Made by a program: the position numbers and the translations under genes. The notes below the pieces were generated by a model. The model was not told the DNA's origin and searched no databases. It saw only the letters and a list, made by a program, of their open reading frames with translations. This document shows positions 6,423-48,925 of a DNA stretch of 64,000 bases, piece after piece (within the stretch, counting starts at the first letter, position 1; the number at the start of each line of letters is the position of its first letter). The stretch covers positions 124,001 through 188,000 of the forward strand of contig QGON01000069.1 of assembly GCA_003660235.1 (NCBI GenBank), given 5' to 3'. Source of the DNA: a bacterium endosymbiont of Escarpia laminata (GTDB taxonomy: Bacteria; Pseudomonadota; Gammaproteobacteria; Chromatiales; Chromatiaceae).

Positions 6423-8413
6423 CTACCCAATTGATTGCCAATAGTCAGACTGACGTTGCAGACTCTGTTTACGGTTGATTATTACCTCAATAATCCTGCC
6501 GCTTTTGGCCTTGATGGCTTCGTAAAGGGCGGGTCTGAATTCGGCCTGTTTTGTAATACGGCGATAATCGATCCCAAACAGTTGCGCCGCGTGAGAGAAA
6601 TCCAGGCCGGTGGGCATCAACCAGTGTTTTTCAAAGCCTTTCAGTTCGGCCTGTGGCAGCTGGCCGAAGATGGCGCCGCCGCCGTTGTTGAGCAGGATGA
6701 TAGTTGCGACCGAATCCCGCATGGCCAGCAGGCCATTCGCTGCCAGCCATGGAGAGCGAAGCGAAGGCTGGTAGTCCCCGGTAGCCGCGAGGCCGCACTG
6801 CTTACCCGGCGTGCCTTGCGCCAGAGGGGAAGCAAAGTAGGCATCCGAGCGCGGCGTCCAGTCATCGGGAGCTGGCAACGGAGCGGCAACGAGCTTGCGA
6901 GGTTGTCGCGTAGTGCCAGTGACCGGGACGGCCGGGGCACAAACAGGTTGTCGAAGGCCGAGTCGATTTTGGGGACTGGGATGTCCCAAAATCTATCACG
7001 AGGTCGAAGACTCACTTGCATGTCGTGGAAAAATGTCAGGTCACCCAGCAGTCCAATAACAGGTTCGTTGTTGGCGGCTGCAATGCCGAGCAGGGTGGAG
7101 ATGTTTCCGTCGATACCGCTGGCGCCCCGGTTGGCGAGGATACGGATCGCCTTGCTGGAGGTGCCGCTCCAACTGTCGAGTTGGCGTATGGGCAGGGAAT
7201 TTCCGCTGAACAGCGTGGCGCCGGATGGGATGCAATCGAAAATCTCGCCGATGATTGTGTCTTCAAAGGGGAGAGATTCAGGGGCAGGTTGCCGGTTGTT
7301 TAACGCCCGCTCCTGAGCGGCAAAGTCATTGAACCAGTTATCCCCGGCAGAGACAGGACTCATCTCCAGCAATTTTTCGCACAACAGTGTCGGCGTGGCG
7401 CGTATCATCTCCGTCACCTGGTGCAGCGGGTCGGGCCAGTTGCCGAAAGGATCACAGAGCAGGGTGGGGGCATCACTCCCCTCCAGATAATTGAGCAGGG
7501 TTTTGGAAACGGGCGCTGCGCCGAATCTCAATACCCATGCGGGTTGATGTTGTTGACAGAAATCCGGATTGCGCAGAAAACCGTCATAGCGGCTGATGAT
7601 GTGCGACAGGTCATGATTGCCGAAACGCAGCTGGCTGAGTGGGTCGGCGAGAATCGGTGCTCCCAGTGCTTTGGCCAGTTTTGTCACAGTATCCGGGAAC
7701 CTGGCGTGATGGGTATTGGCTCCACAGACGATCAGTCCGGACCGGCCCGATAGGCAGGTGTGGATGTTGGCCGTCTGATTCTGGTCCGGCAGGATTGATG
7801 GCGCAGGTGGTGTTTGCTTGGCTGCTGCTTTGGGTAATTCGGGAAACTGCTTTGGTACCAGAGGCTCCCTGAAAGGAAGGTTGAGATGCACCGGCCCGGG
7901 ATTGGGCCAGCAGGCCTGGTGACCGGCGCGAACCCCCAGAGCGCGGATATAGTTGATCGCCTCGGGCGCAGCGGGTCCCGGATCGTGAAATCCACGTACG
8001 TGAGAGCCGAATAGCCGGTTTTGGTCGACAGACTGGTTGGCGCCACAATTCTGTAGTTCCGGTGGCCGGTCGGCGCTGAGCAGGAGCAGGGGAATGTTCC
8101 CGCGGTTTGCCTCGATAACGGCGGGATACCAGTGTGCGGGAGCGCTGCCTGAGGTGGCGATCACGATTACCGGTTCGCGGTTGTGGCTGGCAAGGCCAAG
8201 CGCAAAGAAAGCCGCACTGCGTTCATCGGGATGGTGCCAGCTGGTGATGTCGTGCCGCCGCTCAATCGCAAGCACCAGCGGCGTGGAGCGTGAGCCGGGA
8301 GAGATTACGGCATGATGGATGCCAGTAGCCACTATCCCGTCGATCAGTGCGTCTGCCCAGCGCAGATTGAGGGTGGCGGTATCTTCATATACGCCTTTCG
8401 TGTGTTCAGGCAT
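6423..8413 (-). pseudogene. menD: menD (SEPHCHC synthase) interrupted by a 281-bp insertion
   Basis: MenD is a thiamine-diphosphate enzyme that joins isochorismate and 2-oxoglutarate (EC 2.2.1.9). The N-terminal part is intact, with SPGSRSTPL and the DERSAAFF region bearing the catalytic Glu. Reading runs to GDLTFFHDM and then enters foreign sequence at 7018. The family sequence resumes at NGLLAMRDS (codon AAT 6737-6735) in another phase. Removing 6738-7018 leaves 1710 bases, exactly 570 codons, an uninterrupted 569-residue MenD. The break falls between the GD and the Asn of the ThDP/Mg motif. As written the gene gives an N-terminal product ending at 6641; an ATG at 6989 opens the frame of the C-terminal part. 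The start ATG 8413 overlaps the menF stop by eight bases. It is inactive unless the insert is removed or bypassed. Confidence 0.88.
6738..7018 (-). mobile_element. 281-bp structured repeat element inserted in menD
   Basis: The boundaries are set by the two halves of menD. The element begins CAAGTGAG on the menD sense strand and ends GGCTGGCAGCG. It contains a hairpin at 6965-6993 with arms GATTTTGGGGAC and GTCCCAAAATC around loop TGGGAT. Relatives at about 45727-45920 and 48881-48925 share the terminal CAAGTG-like end, the hairpin and a GTGCCCCGGCC block. It encodes no recognisable protein. No clear target duplication is visible. Confidence 0.75.
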
Positions 8414-9803
8414 TTTCCAATGCTTCCAGCATCGCAAAGAATTTCAACTCTGTCTCATTAAATTCGGCAGTAGGGTCTGAACCGGCGGTAATTCCGGCGC
8501 CTGCATAGAGCTCCGCACAGTCACCATCGAGCAGGGCGCAACGCAGGAGTACGGCCAACTCTCCATCTCCAGATGCACTCAGCCAACCTGCCGCGCCCGT
8601 ATACCAACCCCGGTTGAGTGGTTCATTCTGCTGCAGCCAGGCAAAGGCCTTTTCGGATGGTGCACCATTCACCGCGCCGGTGGGGTGCAGTTTGGCAGCA
8701 ATATCCAACAGGCCGATACCAGGATTTATCTCACCTCGAATTTCAGTCCAGAGGTGTTGCAGGTTTCGAAGCGGCATCAGTTGCGGCTTTTGAGGGTGCC
8801 GCAGATGGGAACAGAGGGGGGTCAAGGCCTGTTTGATGGTATCAACCACGACGCGGTGTTCATGTGCCGTCTTGGGATCAGACAGGAGTGCCTGGCCGAA
8901 TGCCAGATCTCTGTTCTCTTCAGCGCTACGCTGTGTTGTGCCGCCGACCGCATCGCAGATGATCTCTGAGCCTCGGCAGGAGAGCAGTCGTTCCGGCGTG
9001 GCGGCAGTCAGCGTTACCCCATTGAAACGGGTGGCGAAATGGAGACTGCGGGGATAGAGGCAGTTTAGGGTTGCAGAGAGCCGTACAGGACTCAGTGTGT
9101 GTTGGGCCTGCACCCGGATATGTCGAGCCAGCACGGTTTTTTCCAGTTCGCCGCGCGTTATCCCGGACTGGAGTTGCTCAACCAACCTCAGCCACTTATC
9201 CGGCGTTGGGGTCGATTCAATCCGGGTCAAGGTTGTGCGTTGTCCCGATGGTCCCGGTTTATGCGACAGTGTGGTAATCAGTTCTTCGAGGCGTCTGATC
9301 CACTGCCCCAGGATGACGCCTTTGTCGTTGTCGACGCTGCAGTCCCAACTGCAGGAGAGTACGCAGTTGTTGTCACTCTGTTGCAGCAGCAGTTGTGGGA
9401 GAAAGAGACCGGCGTTGGGCATACCTTTCCATGCCGCATCCATAGGGTCATCGGGTGCAAAGGCAAAGCCGATGAAAGTGATGGGGTGACAGGTGGTCTG
9501 TTCAGGATCGAGCCGTATCCAACGGCTTTGCAACTGCTTGTATGCGGTTGCCAGGCGTTTCAACCGGTCGTCTCCGGATGTGGTGACAGTCAGCGCTTCT
9601 CCGATGCCGATGACATATTCATCCTGTTCGGGTTTGGCCCAGAAAAACCAGTTGTCGTCAGCCATGGCCGACAGATTGTGCAGGTGGATCTCCGGCAGGG
9701 GCAGCGTCAGAGTGACGACCTGATCTGAGGGGGCTGTTTGGTCTTGCAGCACCTTCTTTAGTTTATTCTGAATGCGCTCGATAAGCGCCTGGCGGTCAAA
9801 CAT
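8406..9803 (-). CDS. menF: Isochorismate synthase (MenF)
   Basis: A 465-residue chorismate-binding enzyme. The C-terminal half holds the family signatures: a GELEKTVLARH segment with the general-base Lys, the GGTTQRS stretch, EHRVVVDTI with a metal-binding Glu, and the terminal LYAGAGITAGS loop. It converts chorismate to isochorismate (EC 5.4.4.2), the first step of the classical menaquinone route. It is the first gene of the leftward men operon and overlaps menD by eight bases. Salicylate- or siderophore-type isochorismate synthases look similar; the neighbouring men genes decide for MenF. Confidence 0.92.
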   Translation of the reverse strand: MFDRQALIERIQNKLKKVLQDQTAPSDQVVTLTLPLPEIHLHNLSAMADDNWFFWAKPEQDEYVIGIGEALTVTTSGDDRLKRLATAYKQLQSRWIRLDPEQTTCHPITFIGFAFAPDDPMDAAWKGMPNAGLFLPQLLLQQSDNNCVLSCSWDCSVDNDKGVILGQWIRRLEELITTLSHKPGPSGQRTTLTRIESTPTPDKWLRLVEQLQSGITRGELEKTVLARHIRVQAQHTLSPVRLSATLNCLYPRSLHFATRFNGVTLTAATPERLLSCRGSEIICDAVGGTTQRSAEENRDLAFGQALLSDPKTAHEHRVVVDTIKQALTPLCSHLRHPQKPQLMPLRNLQHLWTEIRGEINPGIGLLDIAAKLHPTGAVNGAPSEKAFAWLQQNEPLNRGWYTGAAGWLSASGDGELAVLLRCALLDGDCAELYAGAGITAGSDPTAEFNETELKFFAMLEALENA

Positions 9804-45258: not shown

Positions 45259-45726
45259 ATGAAAAAAGAGTGGTATCAATACACTGGTTGTGGGTTGGAT
45301 TATATCTATCTGACCAACGGCTATGAGATAAAAGAGACTCCTTTTGGTGAAGGTGTGACCATTCACAACCTAGACGGGTTGCACCGTGCTATTGCTGCAG
45401 ATTTAGTCAATGACAGGCCTAACTGGACCGGGGCAGAACTGCGTTTTATCCGTAAGGAGCTGGGGTTCACCCAGCAGACCCTCGGTGCGTTTGTGTCACG
45501 TGACGCCCAGACTGTCGCTCTTTGGGAAAAAGATAAGCAGCCAGTACCTGAAGAAGCCAGCAATATCATCCGTGGGATTTATAAAAGCCGTATGGAAGGC
45601 AACGTAGAGTTTGAAAAGATGATCGAGCGCATCAATGAACTTGATCGCCAAATCATTGATGCGGACGAAAGAATGACAGCCTACAAAGCAGATGCCTCGG
45701 GATGGCACACTGCAAAAGCCGCCTAA
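45259..45726 (+). CDS. XRE-family regulator, candidate antitoxin
   Basis: A 155-residue protein. An N-terminal 60-residue region (YTGCGLDYIYLTNGYEIKET) precedes a helix-turn-helix (LGFTQQTLGAFVSRDAQTVALWE) and a coiled-coil tail. The layout is that of MqsA/HigA-type antitoxins: a toxin-contact domain followed by a DNA-binding domain. I chose ATG 45259 because GGGGGTG lies in front. Its gene is 27 bases after the DUF4258 gene. The stop is immediately followed by repeat-element sequence. Confidence 0.7.
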   Translation: MKKEWYQYTGCGLDYIYLTNGYEIKETPFGEGVTIHNLDGLHRAIAADLVNDRPNWTGAELRFIRKELGFTQQTLGAFVSRDAQTVALWEKDKQPVPEEASNIIRGIYKSRMEGNVEFEKMIERINELDRQIIDADERMTAYKADASGWHTAKAA

Positions 45727-45920
45727 TCAGGCGCATCCGACACGCCGTCTAGCCACTTGAGGGAGTGCTGCGCAGCCAGCGCCGAGCGAAGCAATGGTGT
45801 GGCGAAGCGGCACGGACGCAGGGTGGCCGGGGCACAATAGGCTGTCGTGGCAAGCGAGGGCGAAAGGGGGACTGGGATGTCCCGTTTCGCATCCTGAGCG
45901 TCACGACACACTGGAGGCCC
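45727..45920 (-). repeat. Structured repeat element, copy 2
   Basis: Shares with the menD insertion the GACTGGGATGTCCC hairpin core, the GGCCGGGGCACAA block and the CGACACACTGG end. Its hairpin (45860-45890) has arms GCGAAAGGGGGAC and GTCCCGTTTCGC around TGGGAT. The left limit is uncertain. It begins at or near the antitoxin stop and ends by 45920. Confidence 0.65.
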
Positions 45921-46468: not shown

Positions 46469-48838
46469 ATGAACAATAAATGGTTACCCGTTTTTTCGTT
46501 AGCTATTGCAATCCTCATACTACCCCTTACTGTCAATGCAGATTTTGCGGATGAAATAAAGCTGCTGGCCTCTGACGGCGCTAGTCAAGACCAGTTCGGC
46601 TGGTCTATTTCGATCAGTGGTGACACGGCCATAGTCGGGGCACCAGTAGTCGATAACAACGGTGCGGCCTATATCTTTGTACGTGACCCTGTCACCGGTG
46701 CCTGGACGCAGCAGCAGAAGCTGCTGGCTACCAATGGCGTGTTTAATGATCGTTTTGGTGAGTCTGTTTCGATCAGCGGCGACACGGCAATCGTCGGGGT
46801 AAAGGGGGATGATGACAACGGAGAAAGTACCGGCTCCGCCTATGTCTTTGTGAGAGACCCTGCCACCGGCAACTGGACACAGCAGCAGAAGCTGCTGGCC
46901 TCCGACGGCGCGGCTTATCATATATTTGGCAAGTCTGTTGCGATCAGCGGCGATACGGCGATCGTCGGAGCAGATTTTACTACTCTCATCACAGTTGGTA
47001 CCGGCCAGGCCTATGTCTTTGTACGTGACCCTGCCACCGGTTTCTGGACAGAGCAGCAGAAACTATTGGCCTCCGATGGCGCGCTCAACGATTTCTTTGG
47101 CTACCGTGTTGCGATCGATGGCGACACCGCATTGGTGGGGGCGATTGGGGAGGGTGTTAGTTTTGTCGGCGCGGTCTATGCCTTTGTGCGTGATCCCGCC
47201 ACGGGCGACTGGGCTGAGTCACAGAAACTGCTGACATCCAACGCATCGAGTTTCGATCGTATTGGCGAGTCCGTTTCGATCGACGGCGATACGGCAATAA
47301 TTGGGGCAAGCGGGGAGGGCTCCGCCTATGTTTTTGTGCGTGATCCTGCCACCGGTGACTGGACGGAGCAACAGCAGCTCTGGGATCCTAACGGCGTGTT
47401 TCAGAACGATTTCGGTGTAGCTGTCTCCATTAGCGGCGACTACGCGATAGTTGGCGAACGCAGTGCTCGTACCGCCTTCGCCTATGTGCGAGACCCGGTC
47501 ACTGGCCTTTGGACAGGGCAGAAGCTCCTACCCACTGACAACGGTAATCAATTCGGCATTTCTGTTTCGATCGACGGTGACAGGGCAATAATCGGGGCAT
47601 CTGGGGCTAATGGCATTGAAGATTTTGCCGGCGCTGCCTATGTCTACACAAACACGGTGGTGGCTACTCCTGACATCACCGTGACCGACTCAGTCGCGCC
47701 GATAGATGATCTGCAGGTTTCCTTTGGTGATGTCACCGAGATGGCCACTGCCGATCAGACCGTGATCGTTACCAACGATGGTAACGCAGATCTGCTTCTC
47801 GGCAATCTCGCCCAGGCCGATCCGCTGGCGTCACCCTTCAGTATCCTGAACGACACCTGCTCGGCTCAGACGCTGACCCCGGCCGCCAATTGCTCCTTAA
47901 CCGTGCGCTTCTCGCCACCGTCGACAGGCGCTTTTAGCGACAGTTTCGATATTCCCTCCGACGATCCGGACGAAAACCCGGTAACGGTCAATGTTGACGG
48001 AACGGGTATAGGGTTAGTGGTACCGGATATCACCGTTACCGATTCCGCCGCCCCGGTGGACGATCTCGCGATTGCCTTTGGTAATGTCACCCAGGCCACT
48101 ACTTCGGATGAGACAGTTACCATTACCAATGATGGAAATGCCGATCTGACTATCGGAAATATCGGTGCGCAGGACGTACTGGTGGCGCCCTTCAGTATCC
48201 TGAATGATACCTGTTCAACGCAGATTCTGGTGCCGGCGGCAAGTTGCACTTTGACTGTCAGATTTGAACCGACTGCTGCAGGAACGTTCAATGACAGCTT
48301 TGATATACCGTCCGACGACGCGGATGAGGCATCCGTTACGGTGAATTTATCTGGCACAGGGACAGCAATACCGGTTCCGGATATCACTGTTACCGATTCC
48401 GTAGCGCCAGCTGGCGATCTTCAGGTTCCATTTGGCAACGTCACCGAGGGTGCCGTATCCAACAAGATAGTAACGATCACCAATGACGGCAGCGCAAATC
48501 TCACTCTCGTTCAGATCGCCTTGGCCAATCCATTGGCAGCGCCTTTCAGTATCCTGAATGACACATGCTCGGCCCAGACTTTGACACCGGCGGCAAGTTG
48601 TACATTGACGGTCAGCTTTGCACCGACTGTCATAGGGATATTCAATGACAGCTTTGACATCCCTTCGGATGATCCGGATGAAGGTTCGGTGACAGTTAAT
48701 CTGTCTGCTACCGGTGTGGTCGTGGATGACGATGATGGTGGTTTTGGAAGCATGGGCCCACTCGAACTATTGTTTGGCTTGCTGGGTCTTGTGTTGGTCT
48801 TCGCTGCGCGCAATGGAGAGCGAAGAGAAGACGTGTAG
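46469..48838 (+). CDS. FG-GAP / choice-of-anchor-D surface protein with CTERM-like tail
   Basis: A 789-residue exported protein. A signal peptide (LAIAILILPLTVNA) is followed by seven FG-GAP-like repeats, each with F-G-x(2)-V/I-S/A-I-x-GDTAIVG (residues 30-400). Then come three domains of about 112 residues opening PDITVTDS and containing an ILNDTCS...C pair, as in choice-of-anchor-D/ASH domains. The C terminus is tripartite: Asp/Gly stretch (DDDDGGFGSMG), hydrophobic LLFGLLGLVLVFAA, basic RNGERRED, resembling exosortase- or rhombosortase-type sorting signals. Probably surface-attached; adhesion is inferred. It lies inside the island. Confidence 0.8.
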   Translation: MNNKWLPVFSLAIAILILPLTVNADFADEIKLLASDGASQDQFGWSISISGDTAIVGAPVVDNNGAAYIFVRDPVTGAWTQQQKLLATNGVFNDRFGESVSISGDTAIVGVKGDDDNGESTGSAYVFVRDPATGNWTQQQKLLASDGAAYHIFGKSVAISGDTAIVGADFTTLITVGTGQAYVFVRDPATGFWTEQQKLLASDGALNDFFGYRVAIDGDTALVGAIGEGVSFVGAVYAFVRDPATGDWAESQKLLTSNASSFDRIGESVSIDGDTAIIGASGEGSAYVFVRDPATGDWTEQQQLWDPNGVFQNDFGVAVSISGDYAIVGERSARTAFAYVRDPVTGLWTGQKLLPTDNGNQFGISVSIDGDRAIIGASGANGIEDFAGAAYVYTNTVVATPDITVTDSVAPIDDLQVSFGDVTEMATADQTVIVTNDGNADLLLGNLAQADPLASPFSILNDTCSAQTLTPAANCSLTVRFSPPSTGAFSDSFDIPSDDPDENPVTVNVDGTGIGLVVPDITVTDSAAPVDDLAIAFGNVTQATTSDETVTITNDGNADLTIGNIGAQDVLVAPFSILNDTCSTQILVPAASCTLTVRFEPTAAGTFNDSFDIPSDDADEASVTVNLSGTGTAIPVPDITVTDSVAPAGDLQVPFGNVTEGAVSNKIVTITNDGSANLTLVQIALANPLAAPFSILNDTCSAQTLTPAASCTLTVSFAPTVIGIFNDSFDIPSDDPDEGSVTVNLSATGVVVDDDDGGFGSMGPLELLFGLLGLVLVFAARNGERREDV

Positions 48839-48880
48839 TCTCAGGTAGGTGCAGGCGTATGTGGCAGGAGTTGTGTAATA

Positions 48881-48925
48881 GGACAGGGATGTTCTTTGCG
48901 CATCCTGAGCGTCGCGACGCACTTG
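48881..48925 (-). repeat. Structured repeat element, partial copy 3
   Basis: GGACAGGGATGTTC followed by a TTTGCGCATCCTGAGCG stretch and CGACGCACTTG. It aligns with the hairpin and terminal end of copy 2 and shares the terminal CAAGTG with the menD copy. The rest of the element is missing. Confidence 0.6.

What the first reader, a model, noticed from the sequence alone, without database searches (positions are those of the whole stretch)
6738..7018. menD split by a 281-bp element exactly inside its thiamine-diphosphate motif
The sequence shows GDLTFFHDM, then foreign DNA, then NGLLAMRDS. Removing exactly 281 bases gives 570 clean codons. All other men genes in the window look intact, so either menaquinone synthesis was lost recently, another menD copy exists, or the insert is removed or bypassed (RNA-level excision, ribosomal bypass, split protein). 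The insert is free of stops in at least two sense frames. Excision is speculation.
Basis: partly seen in the sequence, partly recalled or inferred. Interest (0 to 1): 0.75.

Follow-up and report, generated by a model that had tools for sequence, protein, structure and literature searches.

The report
Scarless structured mobile repeat interrupts menD
In a bacterium from a genus of tubeworm symbionts, a gene for making menaquinone (a vitamin K) is interrupted by one of 47 near-identical 281-base repeats that sit in the genome without a scar; this likely disables the gene, relatives carry up to 363 such repeats, and how the repeats move is still only inferred.

Summary
In detail: menD (minus strand, 6423-8437) is split at 6738-7018 by exactly 281 bp. 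The insert is one of 47 copies in this genome (46 identical, one with one mismatch) with no target-site duplication. All 5 congeners have intact menD with a gap-free empty site; no second menD reaches the family cut-off. Copies lie in both orientations relative to genes, and the strongly folded strand is antisense to menD, so removal at RNA level is very unlikely. menD is most likely a fresh pseudogene.

The element belongs to a family without an Rfam match; its left end is found in 32 of 195 genomes examined of the order. Twenty-seven aligned members (259-317 nt) share 43 consensus pairs, 26 with compensatory changes. One target base is almost fixed: C at -4 of the left flank (46 of 46, 65 of 65 and 27 of 27 in three sets). 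The element's own right end also starts its last four bases with C in 24 of 27. Hairpins near both ends, matching cut sites and scarless insertion resemble IS200/IS605-type single-strand transposition in trans. The enzyme was not identified; no reverse transcriptase was detected in the genome with most copies.

The parts
6738..7018 (+). The inserted element, 281 bp, no open frame of its own that is conserved; one of 47 copies
6741..6773 (+). Left hairpin (helix 1: 6741-6748 with 6766-6773), 3 bases from the left end; covaries
6776..6937 (+). Central domain closed by CCCCGG 6776-6781 with CCGGGG 6932-6937 (helix 3); covaries
6965..6993 (+). Right hairpin GATTTTGGGGAC...GTCCCAAAATC (helices 10 and 11); covaries; group II introns sit in its loop in some relatives
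7015..7018 (+). Last four bases CTTG of the element: C at -4 of the right end, as in the left target
6734..6734 (+). Target C at position -4 of the left flank, fixed in 46 of 46 copies that have a left flank
7019..8437 (-). menD, 5' part (up to codon M of HDM)
6423..6737 (-). menD, 3' part (from codon N of NGLLAMRDS to the stop codon)
45731..45914 (+). Older relative of another subfamily that lacks the left part (covariance-model match 45628-45914; similarity starts near 45731 by eye)
48802..48925 (+). Internally shortened, diverged relative of 124 bp; T, not C, at -4

Best explanation
The 281-bp insert in menD is one of 47 copies in this genome of a short scarless repeat without a gene of its own; it likely disables menD, and it likely moves as a folded single DNA strand that is cut by a HUH-type transposase supplied in trans. 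Shown: the copy number, the near-identity of the copies, the absence of a target duplication, empty sites in relatives, the C at -4 of the left target, the same pattern at the right end, and a covarying fold of one strand. I put the insertion with likely loss of menD at about 0.95, and the HUH mechanism at about 0.4; the number below is for the whole statement.
For: 47 copies, 46 identical and one with one mismatch. No flank match of 4 or more bases; 1-, 2- and 3-base matches in 8, 3 and 1 of 47. Gap-free empty site in 5 of 5 congeners. C at -4 in 46 of 46, 140 of 141, 65 of 65, 27 of 27. Right end with C at -4 in 24 of 27 (many borders set by me). Covariation: 26 of 43 pairs, 0 of 500 shuffles reach any of five measures. 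Copies away from stretch ends are full length in 47 of 47 in this genome, 35 of 35 in the G103 sample and 12 of 13 in the G052 sample. Moderate strand bias in two of three genomes. Pfam Y1 or RayT-type HUH genes are seen in every high-copy genome looked at, G095 only as a broken match.
Against: No HUH gene with matching ends was found: BLAST of elements against the Y1 loci returned gave only one 17-base match, and the covariance model found no element beside RayT in 8 of 17 plasmid records examined. This genome has only a fragment of an IS200-type Y1 protein, the rest being RayT-like or partial; HUH genes are also present in G001, which has only a remnant of the element, so their presence says little. 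Only one target base is fixed, whereas IS200/IS605 elements use a tetranucleotide. Strand bias is absent in the G103 sample (22 of 35) and could follow gene direction. The fold spans the whole element, more than end hairpins require. In this window two older relatives are not full length.
Confidence: 0.42

Rival explanations
1. The element is a short retroelement, a bacterial SINE: its folded + strand RNA is copied into new sites by the reverse transcriptase of a group II intron.
For: The + strand folds well in 27 of 27 members. Group II introns sit inside copies in G000, G005 and G052, and 4 of the 5 loci fetched around reverse-transcriptase genes of G052 hold an element. One relative in the window lacks its left part.
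Against: No RVT_1 match in G103 (363 left-end matches, 65 of 65 sampled copies identical or one mismatch apart) or in G095 (57), both drafts. Full-length copies dominate.
Confidence: 0.12
2. The element's RNA works with a recombinase in trans, as bridge RNA does in IS110 elements or omega RNA beside IscB (both recalled), but with a one-base target rule.
For: Whole-length covarying fold, no duplication.
Against: No Rfam match. Identical copies sit at unrelated targets, which speaks against a programmed target. IS110-like enzymes were not searched for except by a regular expression in 391 kb of G103, without a hit.
Confidence: 0.2
3. The insert is removed from menD mRNA (intron-like excision) or bypassed, so that menD still works.
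For: Removing the insert restores the frame exactly; the minus strand has one open frame.
Against: Both orientations relative to genes, 15 sense and 16 antisense of 31, or 7 and 10 among 17 frames with an NCBIfam match. The folded strand is antisense here. No intron family matches the insert.
Confidence: 0.02
4. Assembly artefact: the repeat was joined wrongly into menD.
For: A draft of 71 contigs; one copy lies at a contig end. Reads could not be seen.
Against: This copy lies inside a 269,612-bp contig; both flanks match menD of relatives without loss of a base; the border and the C at -4 are as in the other copies.
Confidence: 0.03

Closest known systems
PATEs, palindrome-associated transposable elements of Haloquadratum (PMC3119063, passages read)
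   Same: No terminal inverted repeats, palindromes near the ends, no target duplication, too short for a transposase, many copies; themselves a target of other small elements.
   Different: PATE palindromes resemble those of IS605-type transposons; no such partner was found here. Here the whole length is a conserved covarying fold, and one target base is fixed.
IS200/IS605 single-strand transposons (cleavage-site selection: PMC8266576, passages read; the rest recalled)
   Same: Hairpin near each end, scarless insertion beside a fixed motif at the left, a similar motif at the right end, some strand bias.
   Different: Target motif is one base with weak neighbours, not a tetranucleotide; no tnpA element with these ends was found.
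REP/REPIN with RayT (PMC8266576 passages; PMC3116915 and PMC3733652 seen only in a search listing)
   Same: Non-autonomous hairpin elements in high copy in genomes that have RayT-type HUH genes; in L413 an element lies about 350 bp from a rayT piece.
   Different: REPs are 20-40 bp with a GTAG or CGTC tag (abstract of PMC3733652); this is 259-317 nt, often inside genes; no element beside RayT in the 8 plasmid records examined.
MITEs of DDE transposons (recalled)
   Same: Short, non-autonomous, near-identical copies.
   Different: No terminal inverted repeats and no target duplication.

Membership tests
PATE | No terminal inverted repeats, no target duplication, no transposase gene | tested here: met
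   Ends CGCTGCCAGC and, reverse-complemented, CAAGTGAGTC do not match (sequence); six-frame translation
PATE | Palindromes near both ends | tested here: met
   Left hairpin 3 bases, right hairpin 25 bases from the end
PATE | Palindromes related to an IS605-type transposon | tested here: not met
   BLAST against the Y1 loci returned gave one 17-base match only; not all 38 places were fetched as loci
IS200/IS605 derivative | Fixed left target motif of about 4-5 bases | tested here: not met
   Only C at -4 fixed; T favoured at -5 and -1
IS200/IS605 derivative | Left and right cleavage motifs alike | tested here: met
   C-N-N-N at the left in 27 of 27 and at the right end in 24 of 27; right borders partly set by homology
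IS200/IS605 derivative | Bias to one strand relative to replication | tested here: inconclusive
   36 of 47, 57 of 86, 22 of 35; crude, and my replichore borders in G052 were not set blind
REP/REPIN | 20-40 bp hairpin with GTAG or CGTC tag beside rayT | tested here: not met
   259-317 nt; 0 of 8 plasmid RayT loci with an element
DDE MITE | Inverted repeats and target duplication | tested here: not met
   and sequence
Group II or other known intron | Intron RNA family match, sense orientation in genes | tested here: not met
HEARO or other Rfam RNA | Covariance-model match | tested here: not met
   No match over the element in the window or in the elements of 9 loci searched
IS110 with bridge RNA | DEDD/serine transposase in trans and programmed target | not tested

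The most novel reading that the evidence does not exclude
A new class of scarless transposon: a whole-length structured RNA or single DNA strand of about 280 nt, without any gene, recognised as a fold by an undescribed trans-acting enzyme and joined wherever a single C stands four bases upstream, in Gammaproteobacteria from tubeworm symbionts to Legionella and Caedibacter plasmids.
Probability: 0.2. Interest if true: 0.85.

Novelty: new variant of a known kind. Interest (0 to 1): 0.5.

Why it matters
The break in menD is probably ordinary insertional inactivation. The element is worth more: up to 363 left-end matches in one genome, an insertion so clean that exact excision would restore the gene, one almost fixed target base, a fold conserved across orders, and no known enzyme. 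It offers a clean system to ask how a minimal folded strand is recognised and integrated, and it would explain broken genes in these genomes that annotation does not flag.

Tried and rejected
Second menD: none over cut-off. A broken lpxC as proof of bypass: rejected; the broken gene (L009) is the second lpxC and an intact main copy lies at G000:C65. Rfam: no match over the element. Plasmid, phage and E. coli collections with the window element: 3 plasmid records with a left-end match, none in phages or E. coli. Longer autonomous copies: 21 elements in the loci held had no right end within 340 nt; those I looked at were shortened, interrupted or carried group II introns, and I saw none with a gene of its own, but I did not inspect all 21. 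Reverse transcriptase as mobiliser: weakened. 'G103 has no HUH enzyme' was my reading after and is wrong: the Pfam Y1 model misses the RayT pieces found and its relative. A strict strand bias in G052, suspected, came from the order of the listing; the real bias is moderate. Motif searches for IS110-like and serine enzymes in 390,587 bp of G103 (about 13% of it) found nothing. Literature: I saw no paper describing the element in the searches (listings only) or in passages of PMC9796809, PMC8266576 and PMC3119063; absence from print is weakly supported.

Full report
WHAT WAS CHECKED. menD lies on the minus strand of the window. Between the codons for M and N of GDLTFFHDM-NGLLAMRDS stand 281 extra bases, 6738-7018. 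Leaving them out gives 577 codons without a stop; keeping them gives 125 other codons and a stop. In the own genome the same 281 bp occurs again and again (capped at 40 matches); patterns for the left end (up to 2 mismatches) and the right end (up to 3) each find 47 places, 25 on + and 22 on -. All 47 were fetched: 46 are identical over 281 bp, one has a single mismatch.

WHAT THE INSERTION LOOKS LIKE. The borders are sharp. Left and right flanks share 1, 2 or 3 bases in 8, 3 and 1 of 47 copies and never 4 or more, so there is no target duplication. In all five congeners the menD site is empty and aligns without a gap; their menD frames are 580-585 aa, and this genome has no other menD over the cut-off. 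One base of the left flank is fixed: C at -4 in 46 of 46 copies with a left flank (the 47th begins a contig), with T favoured at -5 (27 of 46) and -1 (25 of 46); nothing is fixed on the right. The rule holds in 140 of 141 left flanks of loci from other genomes (141 of 146 elements could be placed; some repeat one site), in 65 of 65 unique full-length sites in loci of Ca. Sedimenticola endophacoides, where 58 copies are identical and 7 differ by one base, and in 27 of 27 diverse members, Legionella and Caedibacter plasmids included. A shortened, diverged relative in this window (48802-48925) breaks it (T at -4). The element's right end shows the same pattern: CTTG, CTTA, CTTC, CCGG, CTCG or CTGG, with C four bases from the end in 24 of 27. 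For members seen once the right border was set by me on homology. The three exceptions are of that kind; a second Caedibacter copy suggests that its border is really CTAT, which would fit.

WHOSE GENOME. The genus comprises six genomes here. The contig of G003 has the length of NZ_JAAVSH020000001.1, endosymbiont of Lamellibrachia barhami, so the window comes from a genus of tubeworm symbionts.

THE FAMILY. An exact 23-base left-end pattern is found in 32 of 195 genomes drawn from the order, 18 of 56 genera: 363 matches in G103, 128 in G004, 86 in G052, 57 in G095, 47 in the own genome (drafts can cut one copy into pieces, but each has one left end). Twenty-seven members of 259-317 nt, chosen by me from fetched loci, were aligned by sequence. 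The consensus fold has 43 pairs, 26 with changes on both sides. 95.8% of cells are paired against 81.0% in shuffles, 0 of 500 shuffles reach any of the five measures, and sliding the partners collapses the signal; relatedness inflates such counts, and the fold was derived from the same alignment. The + strand of each member folds more stably than its complement in 27 of 27, by 24 kcal/mol on average, and the + consensus has 53 G-U against 10 A-C cells; on the other side, the complement gives a consensus of almost the same energy (-30.5 against -31.8) with 31 pairs. For the menD copy alone the z-scores are -2.69 and -0.72. The + strand is antisense to menD. No Rfam family matches the element.

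WHY IT IS NOT SPLICED. Of 47 copies, 45 could be read over the joined site (one begins a contig, one has no spanning frame); 31 lie in a frame of 150 aa or more, 15 sense and 16 antisense. Some frames may not be genes: of 30 tested (all but L046), 17 match an NCBIfam family at 1e-8, 7 sense and 10 antisense. An intron would be sense. Among the broken genes are histidine kinases, efflux permeases, hrcA, a chemoreceptor, a NosD-like protein and the second of two lpxC genes, whose main copy is intact; that they are dispensable is my inference.

HOW IT MAY MOVE. Two alike cut sites, C-N-N-N at the left target and C-N-N-N at the right end, a hairpin close to each end and a seamless product resemble IS200/IS605 transposition, where both cleavage sites are chosen by guide tetranucleotides beside the palindromes (PMC8266576, passages). 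Strand bias points the same way, moderately: flanks are G-rich on the element's + strand in 36 of 47 copies (two-sided binomial 0.0003); 57 of 86 in G052 agree with replichores that I read, not blind, from 20 skew samples (0.003); 103 of 146 in mixed loci; 22 of 35 in G103. Gene direction could confound this. Copies away from stretch ends are mostly full length: 47 of 47 here, 35 of 35 in 391 kb of G103 (15 more are cut by contig ends), 12 of 13 in 400 kb of G052; the two diverged relatives in the window are not.

THE ENZYME. It is not identified. RVT_1 has no match in G103 or G095. The Pfam Y1 model finds none in G103 and one broken match in G095, but G103 holds pieces of a RayT-type HUH protein; a 333-aa relative of 96% identity is known from a symbiont of the same host name, Phacoides pectinatus (P0001), and NCBIfam gives a sub-threshold REP transposase match (40.5 of 80 bits). 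In L413 two tandem units each hold an element about 350 bp from a rayT piece. Against this, 8 of 17 plasmid records with RayT relatives were examined and none holds an element, and the Y1 loci fetched from the genus do not share its ends. A HUH enzyme in trans is my best guess, not a result.

NOVELTY. In build it is closest to the PATEs of Haloquadratum (PMC3119063, passages). It fails the test of a related IS605-type partner, so I do not file it as a PATE. New are the whole-length conserved fold, the single-base target rule and the spread across orders. I call it a new variant of a known kind and leave open that it is a new kind.

Noticed in passing
L252 2606-4000 (G000:C3); L064/L257 near 3378, L068, L071, L075 (G005); L310, L324, L340 (G052): Group II introns sit in the loop of the element's right hairpin, at the same point (GGATG / TCCC) in three genomes; in G000 the intron lacks a recognisable left element.
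   Followed up: partly
L372, L361 (G052) and L366 (G143): Elements are interrupted at two further points, near the right end and after an inner hairpin, by sequence that looks like other group II introns; 4 of 5 fetched reverse-transcriptase loci of G052 hold an element.
   Followed up: partly
L009, G000:C43:164747-165891: A second lpxC, present intact in 4 of 5 congeners, is broken by the same element here.
   Followed up: yes
L413 5945-8327 (G103): A tandem duplication of about 1.28 kb holds an element and a rayT piece that ends in other DNA.
   Followed up: partly
L143/L266: An element carries an insertion of roughly 170 bp in its right hairpin that begins and ends with complementary sequence.
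   Followed up: no
L213 and L383 (IMG/VR contigs): Two contigs of the viral collection carry a copy of the family.
   Followed up: no
G000 small contigs C40-C64: Several short contigs of the own genome hold reverse-transcriptase frames of 600-1300 aa, perhaps DNA of the animal host left in the assembly.
   Followed up: no
L251, G000:C22 near 162000: A reverse transcriptase of 714 aa lies beside genes that look like a type III CRISPR system with cas1 (my reading).
   Followed up: no
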